Origin: Bacillota bacterium
GTDB lineage: Bacteria; Bacillota; UBA994
Assembly (NCBI GenBank): GCA_009773495.1
Contig: WSXW01000012.1
Span: 1-55,515, forward strand
Reading direction: 5' to 3'
DNA: 55,515 bases
Below, one piece after another: positions 1 through 9,781 of the stretch (position 1 is the first letter of the stretch; each line of letters opens with the position of its first letter). The notes beneath the pieces are model-generated. The model ran no database searches and had not been told where the DNA came from. It was given only the letters and a program-made list of their open reading frames with translations. The position numbers and the translations under genes were made by a program.

Positions 1-623
1 GTGTTTCAATCCACGCACCCGCAGGGGGTGCGACGTAACTCCATTTTATTGTCCTCCTTTTAATTCGGTTTCAATCCACGCACCCGCAGGGGGTGCGACC
101 CTTTAACGACGCTTCTGCTGCATCTATGTTAGGTTTCAATCCACGCACCCGCAGGGGGTGCGACGTTAATTCAAATGTCGTTTTTTACACCGAGTGAAGT
201 TTCAATCCACGCACCCGCAGGGGGTGCGACCCCTAAAAAATCACGCTTTTGCAAATCGGTTTTGTTTCAATCCACGCACCCGCAGGGGGTGCGACGATGT
301 TAATCGGCACTAATCCTTTACGATTAGGGTTTCAATCCACGCACCCGCAGGGGGTGCGACCAAAAGATAAATCAACAACCAACCACCAAAAGAGTTTCAA
401 TCCACGCACCCGCAGGGGGTGCGACCCGCAAGGGGTATGACTTCCGGCTACTAGACGGTAGTTTCAATCCACGCACCCGCAGGGGGTGCGACTTTGCTCT
501 TCCCGTTGCGTCCGTCACCATAGAGGTTTCAATCCACGCACCCGCAGGGGGTGCGACCGTTGGTGCCAATCGTGCAGAAGGGTACGTCGATGTTTCAATC
601 CACGCACCCGCAGGGGGTGCGAC

Positions 624-657
624 TTTCAAGCTTAACCTGTTTGCGAACAGGTTAAGT
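624..657 (-). other. Spacer that is an 11-bp perfect hairpin
   Basis: Most of this spacer is an inverted repeat: CTTAACCTGTT (631-641), a 4-nt loop TGCG, and AACAGGTTAAG (646-656). It was probably taken from a terminator or palindromic operator in the target. The crRNA guide itself could fold. Confidence 0.85.
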
Positions 658-1940
658 GTTTCAATCCACGCACCCGCAGGGGGTGCGACTCACCGGGTGC
701 GCCTAAAGACTGAATGGTACGCGTTTCAATCCACGCACCCGCAGGGGGTGCGACTAAAGACGTGCAGGATGCTACCGACGAGTATATGTTTCAATCCACG
801 CACCCGCAGGGGGTGCGACGATATACCCAGAATGACCCGGCGACGTAAGCTAGGTTTCAATCCACGCACCCGCAGGGGGTGCGACCAGTAATGACTGGAA
901 CTTGAAGTTCGCCATTGTAGTTTCAATCCACGCACCCGCAGGGGGTGCGATGCTCATCATGTGGCTTCCTCCTTTCCCTTCGGCGTTTCAATCCACGCAC
1001 CCGCAGGGGGTGCGACGCTGCGGGTGCAGTATGGCACCGAGCATAGGAGGTTTCAATCCACGCACCCGCAGGGGGTGCGACGCGGACTTGTACTGCAGTT
1101 GCCGCCGGAACTCGAAGTTTCAATCCACGCACCCGCAGGGGGTGCGACTCCTGAGGCGCGCCTTAATGACCGCAACAACGAGGTTTCAATCCACGCACCC
1201 GCAGGGGGTGCGACCGGTTATAGCCATCACCCGCGCTACCTGATCGCCGTTTCAATCCACGCACCCGCAGGGGGTGCGACTTTGAGAGCAGGTACTTGCC
1301 CCAAACGCTTTCGTTTCAATCCACGCACCCGCAGGGGGTGCGACGGGCGACCTTATCCCCCTGTCTGCTGTGGGTAGGGTTTCAATCCACGCACCCGCAG
1401 GGGGTGCGACGGTCCTATTGTGATGGCGCTGCTGACGGGTATGAGTTTCAATCCACGCACCCGCAGGGGGTGCGACCATTGTTGCAACATATGTATCCCT
1501 TCTCCTCTCGGTTTCAATCCACGCACCCGCAGGGGGTGCGACTTGCGGCTGCTAGGCAGGGTACGATATTCGGATGACGTTTCAATCCACGCACCCGCAG
1601 GGGGTGCGACGACTTTAGACTCGCTGCCCTCACAGAGGGATATTGTTTCAATCCACGCACCCGCAGGGGGTGCGACTTGCATTGCAGTGCTTATGATGGC
1701 AGCGGTCAAAGTTTCAATCCACGCACCCGCAGGGGGTGCGACCTGTTCACCATTCCACCCCATCGTTAGGAGAGTGTTTCAATCCACGCACCCGCAGGGG
1801 GTGCGACCAAACCCGCGGTAGTGGTACCACCAGAGCAATTTGTTTCAATCCACGCACCCGCAGGGGGTGCGACTTGATGCAGAGCTTCGCGACGATAACG
1901 CAGTTGATGTTTCAATCCACGCACCCGCAGGGGGTGCGAC

Positions 1941-1974
1941 TGGCCAGCAAGGGCGATGCTGTGCAGCGGTTTAA
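1941..1974 (-). other. Spacer overlapping the spacer at 2072-2105
   Basis: Ends with CAGCGGTTTAA, which is also the start of the spacer at 2072-2105. Merging them gives a 57-nt target segment. The three bases that follow the shared block in the other spacer are GAA, again TTC on the crRNA-sense strand 5' of this protospacer. Confidence 0.75.
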
Positions 1975-2071
1975 GTTTCAATTCACGCACCCGCAGGGGG
2001 TGCGACGTGTTTCGGCTCAAGCAAATAACCGGCATTGCGGTTTCAATCCACGCACCCGCAGGGGGTGCGAC

Positions 2072-2105
2072 CAGCGGTTTAAGAATGAGGTAGACAAAGT
2101 AAAGG
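2072..2105 (-). other. Newer partner of second overlapping spacer pair
   Basis: Begins CAGCGGTTTAAGAATG; its first 11 nt equal the last 11 nt of the spacer at 1941-1974. By array position it is two acquisitions younger and lies on the PAM side of the older protospacer. Confidence 0.75.
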
Positions 2106-5100
2106 GTTTCAATCCACGCACCCGCAGGGGGTGCGACGTTCATAAAGTACTTCAACGCGCTTAGTGAGGAGTTTCAATCCACGCACCCGCAGGGGGTGCG
2201 ACGCAGTCCAACAAGGTGCACAAGTACAAACAGCGATCGTTTCAATCCACGCACCCGCAGGGGGTGCGACGGGGGCGCGATTATGGCTATGTAGTCTCAG
2301 CGGAGGTTTCAATCCACGCACCCGCAGGGGGTGCGACAACGTCTATCCTCTCTAGGTACGCCGCCCCTGTGTTTCAATCCACGCACCCGCAGGGGGTGCG
2401 ACCTGTACAAAATAGGGCATAAATACAGGATTTTATGGTTTCAATCCACGCACCCGCAGGGGGTGCGACATAGAAGGGGGGTAGCAAATGTGAATGTAAA
2501 AGAGTTTCAATCCACGCACCCGCAGGGGGTGCGACCATCTACAACATGTTAGCCAGTCCGTAATTGACGTTTCAATCCACGCACCCGCAGGGGGTGCGAC
2601 TCATACGTTACCCCAAGAGCGCAACATCGATTTTGTTTCAATCCACGCACCCGCAGGGGGTGCGACAATGCGGGTCTGGCGCAGCGAGGGGCCAATCAGA
2701 GTTTCAATCCACGCACCCGCAGGGGGTGCGACTATATACCGCAATGACCCAGACGTATTCCTAGACGTTTCAATCCACGCACCCGCAGGGGGTGCGACTC
2801 ACTATCACCAAGATAGCGTGCGCGTCGTTAAGGTTTCAATCCACGCACCCGCAGGGGGTGCGACGGTTATAAGCCTTACGGTAACACAGGCAACAGGGTT
2901 TCAATCCACGCACCCGCAGGGGGTGCGACCTGCGCGTTGTTCATTGCTTCGTGCGTCTATATAGTTTCAATCCACGCACCCGCAGGGGGTGCGACTGCCA
3001 GAAGTGGCTACATCTTCGTATATGACAAAGTTTCAATCCACGCACCCGCAGGGGGTGCGACCATAACCACAGTGAATGTACCACCTCAAACCTTTGTTTC
3101 AATCCACGCACCCGCAGGGGGTGCGACATCAGTGCAACAGGGGTGCAGTATCGTGCAATGGGTTTCAATCCACGCACCCGCAGGGGGTGCGACCCTGTCG
3201 CCCGGTCTGCCCAAGGTATCGCTTAAGGTTTCAATCCACGCACCCGCAGGGGGTGCGACTTTCACCTAACGCCAGCTGACCGCCATAAAGAAGGTTTCAA
3301 TCCACGCACCCGCAGGGGGTGCGACCATCGGAGTACAGTCCCTGCGCCTCGCGTCGTCTGTTTCAATCCACGCACCCGCAGGGGGTGCGACATGTCTTCC
3401 TTGTTGTTAATGTAAAGGTTATCTGGTTTCAATCCACGCACCCGCAGGGGGTGCGACGGGCACGATAGATCAGATTACAGGTGCATTACACGTTTCAATC
3501 CACGCACCCGCAGGGGGTGCGACCGTAAACGGAGCTATCTCCGAGGTAGGTATACAGTTTCAATCCACGCACCCGCAGGGGGTGCGACTGTGGTTAACGT
3601 TTAAGTTTGCTTCCGTGTTGTGGTTTCAATCCACGCACCCGCAGGGGGTGCGACAGGTAAGCCTTGGTACAGCAATAAGGACCTCTTTGTTTCAATCCAC
3701 GCACCCGCAGGGGGTGCGACCGTGTCGTTAGTCGAGGCCCCTACGGATTTTTTAGTTTCAATCCACGCACCCGCAGGGGGTGCGACCGGAGTTCTCCCGT
3801 AGTCAGCTGGTAGAGAACATGTTTCAATCCACGCACCCGCAGGGGGTGCGACTTACTTTGGTCACAATAAGCGTATAATGAGAGTGTTTCAATCCACGCA
3901 CCCGCAGGGGGTGCGACTTCCGGGGGCTGTTCTCCGTCCTACTGCTGTCAAGTTTCAATCCACGCACCCGCAGGGGGTGCGACGCGGCTGGTGCTGTAGC
4001 TGACGTGGTGGTAACAGTGTTTCAATCCACGCACCCGCAGGGGGTGCGACGGGGCACACAGACAGCAATAGATTTCCACACAGATAGTTTCAATCCACGC
4101 ACCCGCAGGGGGTGCGACGTTTGAAAGCGTCGCAGGGGCGCAGAACAAGGTGTTTCAATCCACGCACCCGCAGGGGGTGCGACGCTACAGCCTCCGCTCA
4201 AGGGCACATAGCCCTAGTTTCAATCCACGCACCCGCAGGGGGTGCGACCCGCTCGGGAAGCGGCCAGGCTACGCGCATTATCGTTTCAATCCACGCACCC
4301 GCAGGGGGTGCGACACGCAAGCAGCGCTAAGGGCGGGATACAGTGAGAGTTTCAATCCACGCACCCGCAGGGGGTGCGACGTCGTTGGTGGGGATTCACC
4401 TGGGGATTCATTAGTTTCAATCCACGCACCCGCAGGGGGTGCGACTTTCATCTGTCTTTCATAATGGTTCTGGGTGCATGTTTCAATCCACGCACCCGCA
4501 GGGGGTGCGACGCCTCATTCCAGTATAGGCGGCGGTGTAGACCAGTTTCAATCCACGCACCCGCAGGGGGTGCGACACGATACAGCCTGGGAGCGTGCGT
4601 TATCAAAGCAGTTTCAATCCACGCACCCGCAGGGGGTGCGACTCGGAACAGCGGAGATCGGAACAGCGGCAGTCGGTTTCAATCCACGCACCCGCAGGGG
4701 GTGCGACTTTCTCGCCGCATTGCTGCAGCGTCCATTTTTCGGTTTCAATCCACGCACCCGCAGGGGGTGCGACAGACGGTGTGCTATGCATTAACGTAGG
4801 TTCACTAGTTTCAATCCACGCACCCGCAGGGGGTGCGACTCCATTGCTAATTCCTCCTTGAGTTTCCGGAGTGTTTCAATCCACGCACCCGCAGGGGGTG
4901 CGACTTGCCTGGGTCCGTTGTAATAGAGAGCGAAGACGTTTCAATCCACGCACCCGCAGGGGGTGCGACTTGTGGGGATGAACCTTCCAGGATTTGACTG
5001 TATGTTTCAATCCACGCACCCGCAGGGGGTGCGACTTAGTCGTGAGGCAACAAAGAGCAGTAGCAGGGGGTTTCAATCCACGCACCCGCAGGGGGTGCGA

Positions 5101-5563
5101 CGTGGTAAATATCACATCTACCCTAATTTTATTGTGTTTCAATCCACGCACCCGCAGGGGGTGCGACGCATCATTTTGTTTACCATAGATTCAGAGTCTT
5201 GTTTCAATCCACGCACCCGCAGGGGGTGCGACGAGTTAATGTACCTCTTGCAATTCCCCACTAACGTTTCAATCCACGCACCCGCAGGGGGTGCGACGCG
5301 AGCCTTTTAAGCCAGACGCAGTGGGCTACGTGGTTTCAATCCACGCACCCGCAGGGGGTGCGACGGCAGGGTTTACCCTTGCCTAGTGTATCCTTAAGTG
5401 TTTCAATCCACGCACCCGCAGGGGGTGCGACCATGGGGTAATTGGCGCGTAAATCGATTGTAGGGGTTTCAATCCACGCACCCGCAGGGGGTGCGACTTA
5501 ACTAAGATGGCTTGATAGTCATATGGTTGTAGTTTCAATCCACGCACCCGCAGGGGGTGCGAC

Positions 5564-5596
5564 CACGTGGAACGTCTCGCAAGTCCATCCTAGTGG
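5564..5596 (-). other. Spacer overlapping the spacer at 6289-6323
   Basis: The last 18 nt of this spacer (starting GCAAGTCC, ending CTAGTGG) are identical to the first 18 nt of the spacer at 6289-6323. Both derive from overlapping protospacers in one target, in the same orientation, offset by 17 nt. In the newer spacer the next bases are GAA, i.e. TTC on the crRNA-sense strand immediately 5' of this older protospacer, the type I-C PAM. Confidence 0.9.
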
Positions 5597-6288
5597 GTTT
5601 CAATCCACGCACCCGCAGGGGGTGCGACGCGTTGCCGGGGATACTACGTTGCGTTTACTGCAAGTTTCAATCCACGCACCCGCAGGGGGTGCGACATAGA
5701 GGGTGGGTGATTGAACCCGACACTGTCGAAGTTTCAATCCACGCACCCGCAGGGGGTGCGACCAGGAACGCGCCGAGACTATCCGTGAGGTAGCAGTTTC
5801 AATCCACGCACCCGCAGGGGGTGCGACGCCGAAAAGTCCTAAAAACTCACGTAACTGAGTAGTTTCAATCCACGCACCCGCAGGGGGTGCGACAGGCATT
5901 TGCAGCTAGGGATGGTTCTGCATTTCCGGTTTCAATCCACGCACCCGCAGGGGGTGCGACCTGCCAACTGTGCCGGGATAGAGTCAGCGAAGTAGTTTCA
6001 ATCCACGCACCCGCAGGGGGTGCGACAGCACCCTTATGTGTTGTCTGAGGACCTCTGGGGTTTCAATCCACGCACCCGCAGGGGGTGCGACGTTAATAAC
6101 TCTAAGCTGTGGGGAGCTTACGAAGTTTCAATCCACGCACCCGCAGGGGGTGCGACATAAGGTGGTGTTTGTGCCGCCTATGTCGTTAAAGTTTCAATCC
6201 ACGCACCCGCAGGGGGTGCGACCCTACGGTGGACTGTACTGCTCAAGGATACGCTGGTTTCAATCCACGCACCCGCAGGGGGTGCGAC

Positions 6289-6323
6289 GCAAGTCCATCC
6301 TAGTGGGAATCCTACTGGACCAA
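6289..6323 (-). other. Newer partner of overlapping spacer pair (7th from leader)
   Basis: Shares 18 nt with the spacer at 5564-5596 and extends past it on the PAM side, giving a 50-nt reconstructed target segment. It lies 11 units closer to the leader, so it was acquired later, as expected for primed or repeated adaptation against the same element. Confidence 0.9.
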
Positions 6324-6486
6324 GTTTCAATCCACGCACCCGCAGGGGGTGCGACGGGGCCTCGTGGCTAACGGCTTTAGTTCTTTAATGTTTCAATCCA
6401 CGCACCCGCAGGGGGTGCGACCGCGATATTCCGGAGTTATCAATGATAACTAAGGTTTCAATCCACGCACCCGCAGGGGGTGCGAC

Positions 6487-6520
6487 CCACGCCCCCGCGC
6501 GGGGGGCGACCCAGTTGGTA
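6487..6520 (-). other. Spacer containing a foreign CRISPR repeat fragment (4th from leader)
   Basis: The first 24 nt of this 34-nt spacer, starting CCACGCCCCCGCGC and ending GGGGGGCGAC, match the local repeat at 20 of 24 positions and have the layout of a type I-C repeat. Two of the four differences are the two partners of one stem base pair (A:T becomes C:G), so the hairpin is kept. The other 10 nt, CCAGTTGGTA, look like the adjoining spacer of that other array. A local repeat that mutated by chance would not be expected to change compensatorily. The donor is not identifiable here. Confidence 0.8.
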
Positions 6521-6756
6521 GTTTCAATCCACGCACCCGCAGGGGGTGCGACACACAGCAAGGTGTCCTGCTCATTCTGACCAAGAGTTTCAATCCACGC
6601 ACCCGCAGGGGGTGCGACGAGGCCGTGAAGCAGAAGGTTGATGCTATAACAGTTTCAATCCACGCACCCGCAGGGGGTGCGACAACTAACGAAGTTACAG
6701 TGGATTGGGTGGTCAAGTTTCAATCCACGCACCCGCAGGGGGTGCGACAGTATATG

Positions 6757-6787
6757 CCCAAGAGCATTGCGCTGCAATGCTCTTGGG
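6757..6787. repeat. 14-bp perfect inverted repeat at leader-repeat junction
   Basis: CCCAAGAGCATTGC (6757-6770), loop GCT, and its exact reverse complement (6774-6787). It ends 8 bp before the first repeat. There is no T-tract, so it is not a standard terminator; it may be a leader recognition element for adaptation or an RNA structure upstream of the first crRNA. Confidence 0.85.
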
Positions 6788-6874
6788 ATGCACTCCCGCG
6801 AACCTAATCTGTCTGGGCAATCTGTTAACGTGTTTGGAGATGTTTTAGGCACAAGAGCCTGCTACCATCAGTAT

Positions 6875-6915
6875 CGCGAACCTACCGATGATAACATGGG
6901 TGCTGTAGGTTCGCG
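6875..6915. repeat. 11-bp perfect inverted repeat in distal leader
   Basis: CGCGAACCTAC (6875-6885) and GTAGGTTCGCG (6905-6915) with a 19-nt loop, just downstream of the cas2 stop. The 10-nt core recurs as a direct copy at 6797-6806. No T-tract follows in the cas direction. Confidence 0.8.
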
Positions 6916-6922
6916 CTGGTGC

Positions 6923-7213
6923 TCAAGTGATGAGGATGCCTTCCGGATCGTAGCCGGGCTTAGCTCCAACGTGTTCTACACGCTTCTTCCAATTACTCCC
7001 TAGGAAATAGTAACGCAGGCTGTCGGTGTTGTGGTTTATTACGTCCTCTAGCTGCTTGCGCAATTGAAGGTATTGGTGAGGCTCTACTAGACACTCGAAA
7101 ACAGAGTTTTGGACGCGTTGCCCATGGTTTTCGCATATGCGTGCTACCCTGCGCAAGCGACAATTTCCGTGCTCGCTAGATGTTTCTACATCGTAAGTGA
7201 TTAGCACCATCAT
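6923..7213 (-). CDS. cas2: CRISPR-associated endonuclease Cas2, type I-C
   Basis: A 96-residue protein of normal Cas2 length. The N-terminus MMVLITYDV is the conserved first beta strand with the metal-binding Asp at position 8, followed by RRVARICENHG, the usual first helix. Cas2 dimerises and bridges two Cas1 dimers in the integrase that inserts new spacers at the leader end. It starts 12 bp after cas1 and is the last gene of the operon, 174 bp from the array. Confidence 0.95.
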   Translation of the reverse strand: MMVLITYDVETSSEHGNCRLRRVARICENHGQRVQNSVFECLVEPHQYLQLRKQLEDVINHNTDSLRYYFLGSNWKKRVEHVGAKPGYDPEGILIT

Positions 7214-7225
7214 GGTAGGTCGCTC

Positions 7226-8251
7226 CTAACGCCAAAAGAATGGGGGATAATCATCTAAGTCACCCCTCAGGTAACGAGCCAAAAGCATGGCTTGAGTGTA
7301 GGGAAGTAACCCAATCGGTATTTTCTCATTCAGAAATGGGTGTTCTATCTCTTCCTGTTTGCGTTTTTGCCAAGCTTCCAAAACTGCCTTTCGGGTGCTA
7401 GGGTCCATGATCACAGCGCCATTCTCTTTCTGCAAGAAACCATCTGCCGTTACCTGTCGTCGGTTAATCATGGTAAGTACCAGCCGATCAGCGAGATAAG
7501 GGCGAAGCTCTTCCATTAAGTCTAGGGCAAGGCCTGCCCTTCCAGGACGATCACGATGCAGAAAACCCATTTGGGGATCCAACCCTACGGTCTCTAAGGC
7601 AGATGCGGCATCATGAGCCAGTAAAGTGTAAAGAAACGATAGCATTGCATTGACCTTATCTGTAGGCGGGCGGCGAACGCGGCGCGAGAACGAAAATTCC
7701 TCTTTCTGCGCCACAATGAGGTGGTCAAAAACTCCAAAGTACTCTGCTGCCGCCTCCCCTTCCAAACCACGAAGGACATCCAAGTCAGGACTATTCGTTA
7801 CCCTTGAGATTACGTTCGACAGTGTCTTGATAGCCACAGAGAGGGGCTCCTGGGTGTGTACATGGTCGCGGACCGCGCGTTGGAGCGAGGTGCGGCTGTT
7901 ATGAATTTTAGCCACCACAAAGTGCTTAGCCAGATTATTACTGGCTTCAAGGTCTTCTGTACGACGATGCTGATGCCGTCGCAACAGTACGTTGCCCGAC
8001 ACTGTTCCACTGACACGGGCTAGAAAACGGCCATGCTCTGTCAAGAACGAGAGACCCACTCCTCGCTCGCAGCAAAGCGACATCAGAGATGGGCTAGCTC
8101 CGGCGTAGCCAAAACATACAATGCCTTCCAAATTATGGACGGGGATGCGTAGTTTCACTTCTTCAGCTACACGAACCACCACGTTTTCTCCGTCGCGAGC
8201 GAGATAGCTATCCGGTCCAGTGACATAAAGAGTGTTCAGTAGACGCCGCAT
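7226..8251 (-). CDS. cas1: CRISPR-associated endonuclease/integrase Cas1, type I-C
   Basis: The true start is the ATG at 8251, which overlaps the cas4 stop as TAATG and has an AGGAGG-like site upstream; a longer in-frame reading to 8350 lies inside cas4. This gives 341 residues beginning MRRLLNTLYV. Catalytic Cas1 features are visible: Glu164 in RGLEGEAAAEYF, His232 in GFLHRDRPGR and the acidic pair near 244-247 (LALDLMEEL). It integrates prespacers with Cas2 and works with the adjacent Cas4, which in I-C helps select PAM-bearing prespacers. Confidence 0.97.
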   Translation of the reverse strand: MRRLLNTLYVTGPDSYLARDGENVVVRVAEEVKLRIPVHNLEGIVCFGYAGASPSLMSLCCERGVGLSFLTEHGRFLARVSGTVSGNVLLRRHQHRRTEDLEASNNLAKHFVVAKIHNSRTSLQRAVRDHVHTQEPLSVAIKTLSNVISRVTNSPDLDVLRGLEGEAAAEYFGVFDHLIVAQKEEFSFSRRVRRPPTDKVNAMLSFLYTLLAHDAASALETVGLDPQMGFLHRDRPGRAGLALDLMEELRPYLADRLVLTMINRRQVTADGFLQKENGAVIMDPSTRKAVLEAWQKRKQEEIEHPFLNEKIPIGLLPYTQAMLLARYLRGDLDDYPPFFWR

Positions 8252-8943
8252 TACTTGCTCTCCTCCTGGTCTAGGACAGACTTGATATACGCCGACACAG
8301 AATGGCGCTTCCTTGCCAACTTCGGCTGACACGGCTCTTTTAGGGAACAATTGCTACAAGATTTGCTATAGATTGCGGCAGGAGTGGCTCCTGTGATGAA
8401 GCAAGCGTGCATGCGGGCTGCTAATTCTTTTGTACGGTTCCTTAGAGAATCAGTCAGTTCGACGACCTGCTTCCTCCTTGTCTGCCAGTAATAGAGGTCT
8501 CCGTGAGTGATGTGCGTGTTCATCATCTCTTCTATAGAAATCGCCTGCGCACACAACTGTACCTCATCGCGACTATCGGGTTTTGGTTTCCCGCGCTTAA
8601 ACTCCACTGGCCGGGGCACCCAAGAACCAACGACGCCGGGAAGCTGAACAGAGTTTGGACTGCTGGTTTTTACCCTATGGAACTCAACGAGGTCGGCGAC
8701 GCCTTGTAGACCCAAGCTTCTACTCAGGACGGGGACGCTGCGCACGATGCGCAGGTCCCCTCTTGATTCATCGCAGAATGGGTCATCGACGCGCTCATGG
8801 ACATGGCGCCCCTCGACGGTTAGAAGATTTTCCTGCCAAACCTGCTCGACGTGGATAAGAGCCCACTGTCTCTCGCAGAAAGCGAAATGCTGTATGCCTG
8901 ATAGAGGAAGGAGTGCGTCATCTAGATAATTGTTACGCACCAT
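8251..8943 (-). CDS. cas4: CRISPR-associated exonuclease Cas4, type I-C
   Basis: A PD-(D/E)xK, RecB-like nuclease with a 4Fe-4S cluster. Using the ATG at 8943, which overlaps the cas7 stop by 11 bp, the protein has 230 residues and begins MVRNNYLDDALLPLSG. Visible motifs are the first cluster Cys in HFAFCERQWALIH, RHVHERV (RecB motif I), PVEFKRG (motif III Glu-x-Lys), QLCAQAISIEEM, and the C-terminal cluster CSNCSLKEPC. An in-frame extension upstream to 9009 lies inside cas7 and is not needed. Role: trimming prespacers and setting PAM and orientation. Confidence 0.95.
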   Translation of the reverse strand: MVRNNYLDDALLPLSGIQHFAFCERQWALIHVEQVWQENLLTVEGRHVHERVDDPFCDESRGDLRIVRSVPVLSRSLGLQGVADLVEFHRVKTSSPNSVQLPGVVGSWVPRPVEFKRGKPKPDSRDEVQLCAQAISIEEMMNTHITHGDLYYWQTRRKQVVELTDSLRNRTKELAARMHACFITGATPAAIYSKSCSNCSLKEPCQPKLARKRHSVSAYIKSVLDQEESK

Positions 8944-9781
8944 CAAAGACGTCAGGTTCCAGCCCGTCCAACGGTTCAATCGTGACCCTTGGTAAGCTGT
9001 TGCTTCCAAGAACCTCTATTTTGACGCTTCGATGGACTTTTGCCGAGGAGTACTGCCCGCTCATGCAATTGTGCCTCCACCAGATGACCTTCACGACTTC
9101 CATGCTGCCCTCGGGGCGCGCAGCGGAGACATCGTTCAGAAACAGTGTTTTCAGAGCCTCCAGTAGCTTGTCGGCGTCCGCATCACTGAAGCCGGTTTTT
9201 TCGGCCAACTGGCAGTTGATACTGCCGAATGTCTTGTAGACACCAAATTCCACGCGGTGCTTCATGCCCATGGTGTCACTGCCCTTTTTATCTGGGTCTT
9301 TCTCGGTTTCGAGGTTGACGCTCTTAGTAATCTGAAGGCTGCTGATGTCTATAGGCTCAACACTGACCGCACTCTGAATTGTCACAGGGCCGCGCACGCC
9401 AATAGAAACTGAATCGCTATCGCCGCTGCCCTTTGCCTTAAACGCAAACACTTGCCCAAAGGCACGCACGTCATACCACGTTTTGCAGGCTAGTTCTGCT
9501 TTCTTCCTCTTGTCACTTTCATCTCCAATCTCTTTACTCCCTTCAAAGCGGGCATTGAGGCTTCGATAGTCATCCTTTCTGTTGTCGTCCGATTGCACAA
9601 AGACCTGTTCTCCTAAATCCTGCAAACGGTTGCGCAGCTTGCGCTTTAGGCAGACATCTGACACCTCACCATAGCCCTCATAATCGACGCGTGGTCGGTT
9701 GCCGTTAAGCGGATCGCCGTTTGGGTTTGCCTTTTTTACTATAAACATCACTGCAAAGTCAATTTTGTTTGTTAAACTCAT
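8933..9781 (-). CDS. cas7: Cascade backbone protein Cas7 (Csd2), type I-C
   Basis: 282 residues. The N-terminus contains the Csd2 hallmark NPNGDPLNGNRPR after a beta strand (DFAVMFIVKKA), then the SDVCLKRKLRNRL segment. Cas7 polymerises along the crRNA to form the effector backbone. The start ATG shares ATGA with the cas8c stop, so the two are translationally coupled. Length and motifs match the family and no defects were seen. Confidence 0.96.
   Translation of the reverse strand: MSLTNKIDFAVMFIVKKANPNGDPLNGNRPRVDYEGYGEVSDVCLKRKLRNRLQDLGEQVFVQSDDNRKDDYRSLNARFEGSKEIGDESDKRKKAELACKTWYDVRAFGQVFAFKAKGSGDSDSVSIGVRGPVTIQSAVSVEPIDISSLQITKSVNLETEKDPDKKGSDTMGMKHRVEFGVYKTFGSINCQLAEKTGFSDADADKLLEALKTLFLNDVSAARPEGSMEVVKVIWWRHNCMSGQYSSAKVHRSVKIEVLGSNSLPRVTIEPLDGLEPDVFDGA

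What the first reader, a model, noticed from the sequence alone, without database searches (positions are those of the whole stretch)
1941..6323. Two overlapping spacer pairs let the PAM (TTC) be read from the array itself
Seen: spacer 5564-5596 ends with the same 18 nt that begin spacer 6289-6323; spacer 1941-1974 ends with the same 11 nt (CAGCGGTTTAA) that begin spacer 2072-2105. In both pairs the next three bases in the newer spacer are GAA, i.e. TTC on the crRNA-sense strand directly 5' of the older protospacer. Known: TTC is the usual type I-C PAM. A suffix-prefix match of 11 or more among about 100 spacers is expected roughly 0.003 times by chance, and both showing TTC by luck is about 1 in 4000. 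In both pairs the newer spacer lies on the PAM side and on the same strand, which hints at primed re-acquisition close to the first site.
Basis: partly seen in the sequence, partly recalled or inferred. Interest (0 to 1): 0.8.

Follow-up and report, generated by a model that had tools for sequence, protein, structure and literature searches.

The report
Overlapping CRISPR spacers reveal the PAM
Two pairs of overlapping spacers in a large type I-C CRISPR array do record the cell's target-recognition motif (TTC), which matching targets in related genomes confirm, but they do not show primed re-immunisation; both the motif and the overlap rate are ordinary for this kind of system.

Summary
The window holds 103 repeats and 102 spacers (3-6748) of a complete type I-C system. 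Exactly two spacer pairs overlap end to start, by 18 nt (5564-5596 / 6289-6323) and 11 nt (1941-1974 / 2072-2105); chance predicts 0.0033 such pairs. In both, the newer spacer shows TTC just 5' of the older protospacer.

The PAM reading holds on independent data. Spacer 17 has a 35/35 protospacer behind TTC in a same-family genome. Spacer 19 has two near-perfect ones behind TTC and one perfect one behind TTT. In 117 type I-C loci (4992 spacers) I found 25 overlaps of at least 11 nt, against about 0.25 expected. Of 17 triplets read from arrays with GGATTGAAA repeats, 9 are TTC; arrays with GAGTTGAAA repeats read CTT/CTN.

The priming reading is not supported. Geometry in those 25 pairs is even: newer on PAM side 8, newer on far side 7, opposite strand 5 and 5. 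Overlapping pairs do sit unusually close in the array, so the same target was sampled again within a short span of acquisitions, primed or naive. Two pairs in an array this size are ordinary (0.69 expected). No source of either merged target was found.

The parts
3..6748 (-). Type I-C CRISPR array in this window: 103 repeats of 32 nt (crRNA sense GTCGCACCCCCTGCGGGTGCGTGGATTGAAAC), 102 spacers; transcribed towards lower coordinates; newest spacers at the right end; continues on contig C50
1941..1974 (-). Spacer 30, older member of pair B; its first 11 crRNA-sense bases (TTAAACCGCTG) are the last 11 of spacer 32
2072..2105 (-). Spacer 32, newer member of pair B; holds ATTC directly 5' of spacer 30's protospacer
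5564..5596 (-). Spacer 85, older member of pair A; first 18 crRNA-sense bases CCACTAGGATGGACTTGC shared
6289..6323 (-). Spacer 96, newer member of pair A; holds ATTC directly 5' of spacer 85's protospacer
1082..1116 (-). Spacer 17; 35/35 protospacer behind TTC in same-family genome G004:C60:15976-16013
1215..1248 (-). Spacer 19; protospacers G004:C85 (TTC, 2 mismatches), G004:C84 (TTC, 3 mismatches), G001:C58 (TTT, 0 mismatches)
6749..6922 (-). Presumed leader between cas2 and the newest repeat
   Evidence: position only
6923..7213 (-). cas2
   Evidence: TIGR01573, E 8e-19
7226..8254 (-). cas1 of type I-C (the start codon used is approximate)
   Evidence: TIGR03640, 505 bits against cut-off 385
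8251..9009 (-). cas4 (start approximate)
   Evidence: TIGR00372
8933..9781 (-). cas7/csd2
   Evidence: TIGR02589
9778..11748 (-). cas8c/csd1
   Evidence: TIGR01863, PF09709
11745..12497 (-). cas5c
   Evidence: TIGR01876
12510..14924 (-). cas3 (HD plus helicase)
   Evidence: TIGR01587, TIGR01596

Best explanation
This is an intact type I-C CRISPR-Cas locus whose adaptation complex (Cas4-Cas1-Cas2) takes ~34-nt pieces located directly 3' of a TTC PAM. Twice, the same invader, or a close relative, was sampled again at a position 17 or 23 nt upstream of an earlier one. The second spacer therefore recorded the PAM and seed region of the first protospacer. Shown: the overlaps, the TTC in both pairs, TTC next to independent protospacers of other spacers of this array, the complete gene set, and that such pairs occur at a similar rate with no preferred geometry in other type I-C arrays. 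Inferred: that both members of each pair come from one mobile element, and that re-sampling happened because that element was present repeatedly over a short span of acquisitions, primed or not.
For: Overlaps and null. Complete type I-C gene set. Independent protospacers behind TTC. Survey of 117 I-C loci and 4992 spacers: 25 overlaps >=11 nt against about 0.25 by chance; 9 of 17 triplets from GGATTGAAA-repeat arrays are TTC (7 of 15 without this window, p about 1e-9). Geometry even. Overlapping pairs lie close in array order: mean normalised gap 0.18 against 0.34, p = 5e-5; 8 pairs with gap <=2 against 1.2 expected. TTC is the canonical I-C PAM, reported also to share its C with the repeat end (PMC8482600).
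Against: Neither merged target was found in any collection, so co-origin of each pair rests on statistics. One perfect protospacer of spacer 19 carries TTT, not TTC, and some overlap pairs in other arrays read TTG, TTA, TTT, TAC or slipped positions, so TTC is the main but not the only triplet. The 11-nt overlap alone would be modest evidence; its exact suffix-prefix placement and the TTC make it convincing.
Confidence: 0.93

Rival explanations
1. Primed adaptation from the older spacer: the older crRNA bound its protospacer, Cas3 moved 5' along the non-target strand, and the newer spacer was cut out on the PAM side close to the priming site.
For: Both window pairs have the expected side and strand. 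Overlapping pairs in general are close in array order. In E. coli I-E, primed spacers from the non-target strand arise as Cas3 moves 3' to 5' away from the priming site (PMC6282206).
Against: Across 25 pairs the newer spacer is on the PAM side in 8, on the far side in 7, and on the opposite strand in 10. A prespacer that includes the first 18 or 11 bases of the priming protospacer would straddle the R-loop where Cas3 nicks (inference). The same array order and geometry arise from repeated naive sampling.
Confidence: 0.25
2. The shared 11 or 18 nt are conserved motifs or chance matches between unrelated targets.
For: The 18-mer of pair A occurs by chance in three related viral contigs and one Bacteroidales contig with unrelated flanks (25 of 50 identical), so 18-nt coincidences do occur in whole databases.
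Against: Among 102 spacers only 0.0033 such overlaps are expected, and they would not sit exactly at spacer ends or be followed by TTC in both pairs.
Confidence: 0.02
3. The newer spacer answers an escape mutant that had lost recognition by the older one.
For: A perfect protospacer of another spacer (19) with PAM TTT exists in G001, as expected of PAM escape or drift.
Against: In both pairs the newer spacer keeps the TTC PAM and the first 18 or 11 seed bases of the older protospacer, so PAM or proximal-seed escape is excluded for those donors; only mutations further along remain possible.
Confidence: 0.1

Closest known systems
Type I-C CRISPR-Cas (Dvulg subtype): cas3-cas5c-cas8c-cas7-cas4-cas1-cas2 plus array
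   Same: Full gene set in canonical order, GTCGC...GGATTGAAAC repeat, 32-36 nt spacers, TTC PAM
   Different: Nothing in principle; the array is long (at least 108 spacers including contig C50)
TTC PAM assignment for I-C from mapped spacers (Vink et al. 2021, PMC8482600)
   Same: Same triplet; same coincidence of PAM C with the repeat's last C; CTT/CTN PAMs reported for some other I-C repeats
   Different: There the PAM came from database protospacers; here it can also be read from spacer overlaps alone
Competition of overlapping prespacers and internal-PAM avoidance in E. coli I-E (Musharova et al. 2018, PMC6282206)
   Same: Overlapping protospacers with their own PAMs; the downstream PAM lies inside the other spacer, outside its first seven positions
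   Different: Experimental, type I-E, AAG; here natural type I-C spacers

Membership tests
Type I-C CRISPR-Cas | Cas8c/Csd1 signature gene | tested here: met
   TIGR01863 306 bits, cut-off 218.65; PF09709
Type I-C CRISPR-Cas | Cas5c, Cas7/Csd2 and Cas3 | tested here: met
   TIGR01876, TIGR02589, TIGR01587 plus TIGR01596 above cut-offs
Type I-C CRISPR-Cas | Cas1c, Cas2, Cas4 adaptation module beside the array | tested here: met
   TIGR03640, TIGR01573, TIGR00372
Type I-C CRISPR-Cas | TTC PAM 5' of protospacers | tested here: met
   Two overlaps; 3 of 4 protospacers of spacers 17 and 19 behind TTC, the fourth behind TTT
Primed adaptation | New spacers biased in strand and side relative to the priming protospacer | tested here: not met
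   25 overlapping pairs: 8/7/5/5, p = 0.78; tests only pairs displaced by less than ~24 nt
Primed adaptation | Dependence on Cas3 and the effector complex | not testable with these tools
   needs mutants

The most novel reading that the evidence does not exclude
Natural type I-C arrays encode their own PAM in two ways readable without any target database: through overlapping spacer pairs, and through under-use of the PAM triplet inside spacers. TTC is the most depleted triplet in 4124 spacers of GGATTGAAA-repeat arrays, and the relative use of TTC and CTT shifts with the inferred PAM between array groups (control-corrected ratio 0.73, bootstrap 0.50-0.97). That would extend internal-PAM avoidance from I-E to I-C.
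Probability: 0.4. Interest if true: 0.5.

Novelty: new member of a known kind. Interest (0 to 1): 0.3.

Why it matters
It shows that the PAM of an uncultured lineage can be recovered from its array alone and that the answer agrees with real protospacers, which is useful where target databases are empty. It also shows that a tempting sign of priming (newer spacer on the PAM side, same strand) is not diagnostic: in a larger sample no geometry is preferred.

Tried and rejected
Protospacers of the two pairs: exact and degenerate (codon-aware) patterns in viral contigs, one exact pattern in genome contigs (34), 3-mismatch patterns in 15 genomes of the class (36, 37), and the whole array against phages and plasmids (12, 13). 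Hits were either other CRISPR arrays or chance matches with unrelated flanks (23, 38). A degenerate pattern for the newest spacer also found nothing. Internal TTC depletion in this one array is not significant (37 against 46.8 expected). In the pooled set it is strong, but codon phase (3-nt periodicity) and coding-strand effects confound it, so it is offered only as a lead.

Full report
What is there. The first 6748 bases are a CRISPR array of 103 repeats and 102 spacers, followed on the minus strand by cas2, cas1, cas4, cas7, cas8c, cas5c and cas3, each matching its type I-C or general Cas family above the curated cut-off. The crRNA-sense repeat ends in GGATTGAAAC. The array continues at the end of contig C50 with 7 repeats and 6 spacers, the outermost repeat degenerate. 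That fixes the old end on the left and the new end beside the presumed leader at 6749-6922.

The overlaps. All spacer pairs were compared on both strands. Expected by chance: 0.0033. In both, the newer spacer continues with TTC directly 5' of the older protospacer in crRNA sense. The repeat also ends in C, and the I-C PAM C has been reported to coincide with the repeat end (PMC8482600), so the strictly new information is the two T's plus a C that both sources share.

Independent PAM check. The whole array was searched against 15 genomes of the class. Apart from other CRISPR arrays, spacers 17 and 19 hit same-family genomes. With the PAM included in the pattern: spacer 17 lies behind TTC with no mismatch in G004:C60. 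Spacer 19 lies behind TTC with 2 and 3 mismatches in G004:C85 and C84, and behind TTT with no mismatch in G001:C58. The self copies in the array read AAC, as they should. The sources of the two pairs were not found in viral, genome, phage or plasmid collections.

Survey. To learn whether the pairs mean more than the PAM, type I-C loci were collected through Csd1 and read downstream of cas8c. Array extraction and pooling gave 117 loci with 4992 spacers including this array. There were 25 overlaps of 11 nt or more; about 0.13 same-strand plus 0.13 opposite-strand are expected by chance. Counting readings by hand, with the twice-acquired L071 spacer and the L036 pair counted once each, arrays with GGATTGAAA repeats give 17 triplets: TTC 9, others TTG, TTA, TTT, TAC, CTT, GTC, one ATT in a T-run and one TCA with TTC one base further out. 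Arrays with GAGTTGAAA repeats (L143, L145) give CTT 4, CTA 1, CTC 1, in line with the CTT/CTN PAMs catalogued for some I-C systems. Reading PAMs from overlaps therefore works generally.

Priming. Relative geometry of the 25 pairs is newer on PAM side 8, newer on far side 7, opposite strand tail-to-tail 5, head-to-head 5 (p = 0.78). The window's two PAM-side pairs are thus two draws from an even distribution. What does stand out is timing: overlapping pairs are close in array order (mean normalised gap 0.18 against 0.34, p = 5e-5). That says the same target was sampled repeatedly within a short span of acquisitions, which priming and repeated naive sampling both predict. The newer window spacers retain PAM and proximal seed of the older protospacers, so PAM or seed escape did not drive them. 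The rate in other loci predicts 0.69 pairs for an array of this size; two or more has probability 0.15.

Internal PAM avoidance. In E. coli I-E, AAG is avoided inside efficiently primed spacers, mostly in the seed (PMC6282206). Here, in 4124 spacers from GGATTGAAA-repeat arrays, TTC is the most depleted triplet (observed/expected 0.76, its complement GAA 0.91). The contrast with GAGTTGAAA arrays, corrected by the complement triplets, is 0.73 (0.50-0.97). TTC positions show a 3-nt periodicity, so codon phase confounds the size of the effect. In this array alone it is not significant. In both window pairs the internal TTC lies outside the first seven positions (15-17 and 21-23).

Verdict. The system and PAM are of a known kind.

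Noticed in passing
window 6488-6521 (spacer 99): In crRNA sense this spacer is 10 nt of an unknown spacer followed by 24 nt identical to the repeat of other type I-C arrays (GTCGCCCCCCGCGCGGGGGCGTGG), the repeat found in same-family genomes G002 and G004 (L108, L047) and in L125 and L188; it differs at 4 of 24 positions from its own array's repeat. It was apparently acquired from a foreign CRISPR array; the donor spacer was not found.
   Followed up: partly
G001:C58:3691-3727: Perfect 34/34 match to spacer 19 but with PAM TTT instead of TTC, while G004 carries two copies with TTC and 2-3 mismatches: a natural PAM variant that looks like escape or drift.
   Followed up: partly
window 1082-1116 (spacer 17): The protospacer with its PAM reads FFEFRRQLQYKS in one frame, which from memory resembles a TnpB (IS605-type) motif; a lead only, the flanks could not be read.
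   Followed up: no
C50:69805-70233 (L021:9806-10234): The old end of the same array sits at the end of contig C50, with a degenerate terminal repeat; the join to the window start is not assembled.
   Followed up: yes
L143, L145 (arrays with GAGTTGAAA repeats): Overlapping pairs in these type I-C arrays read CTT, CTA or CTC instead of TTC: the PAM changes with repeat type.
   Followed up: partly
L071 (G081:C20): A 179-repeat I-C array with several overlapping pairs, including one protospacer start acquired twice with different spacer lengths (36 and 33 nt).
   Followed up: no
window 624-657 (spacer 10): The spacer contains a strong inverted repeat (CTTAACCTGTT..AACAGGTTAAG) and so matches itself on the opposite strand at 631-656.
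   Followed up: no
pooled type I-C spacers: TTC inside spacers shows a 3-nt periodicity counted from the PAM, so PAMs tend to share the codon phase of the target gene.
   Followed up: partly
G000:C6:15605-16597: A second, distant Cas1 homologue with one in-frame TGA in the same genome, possibly a decayed second CRISPR system.
   Followed up: no
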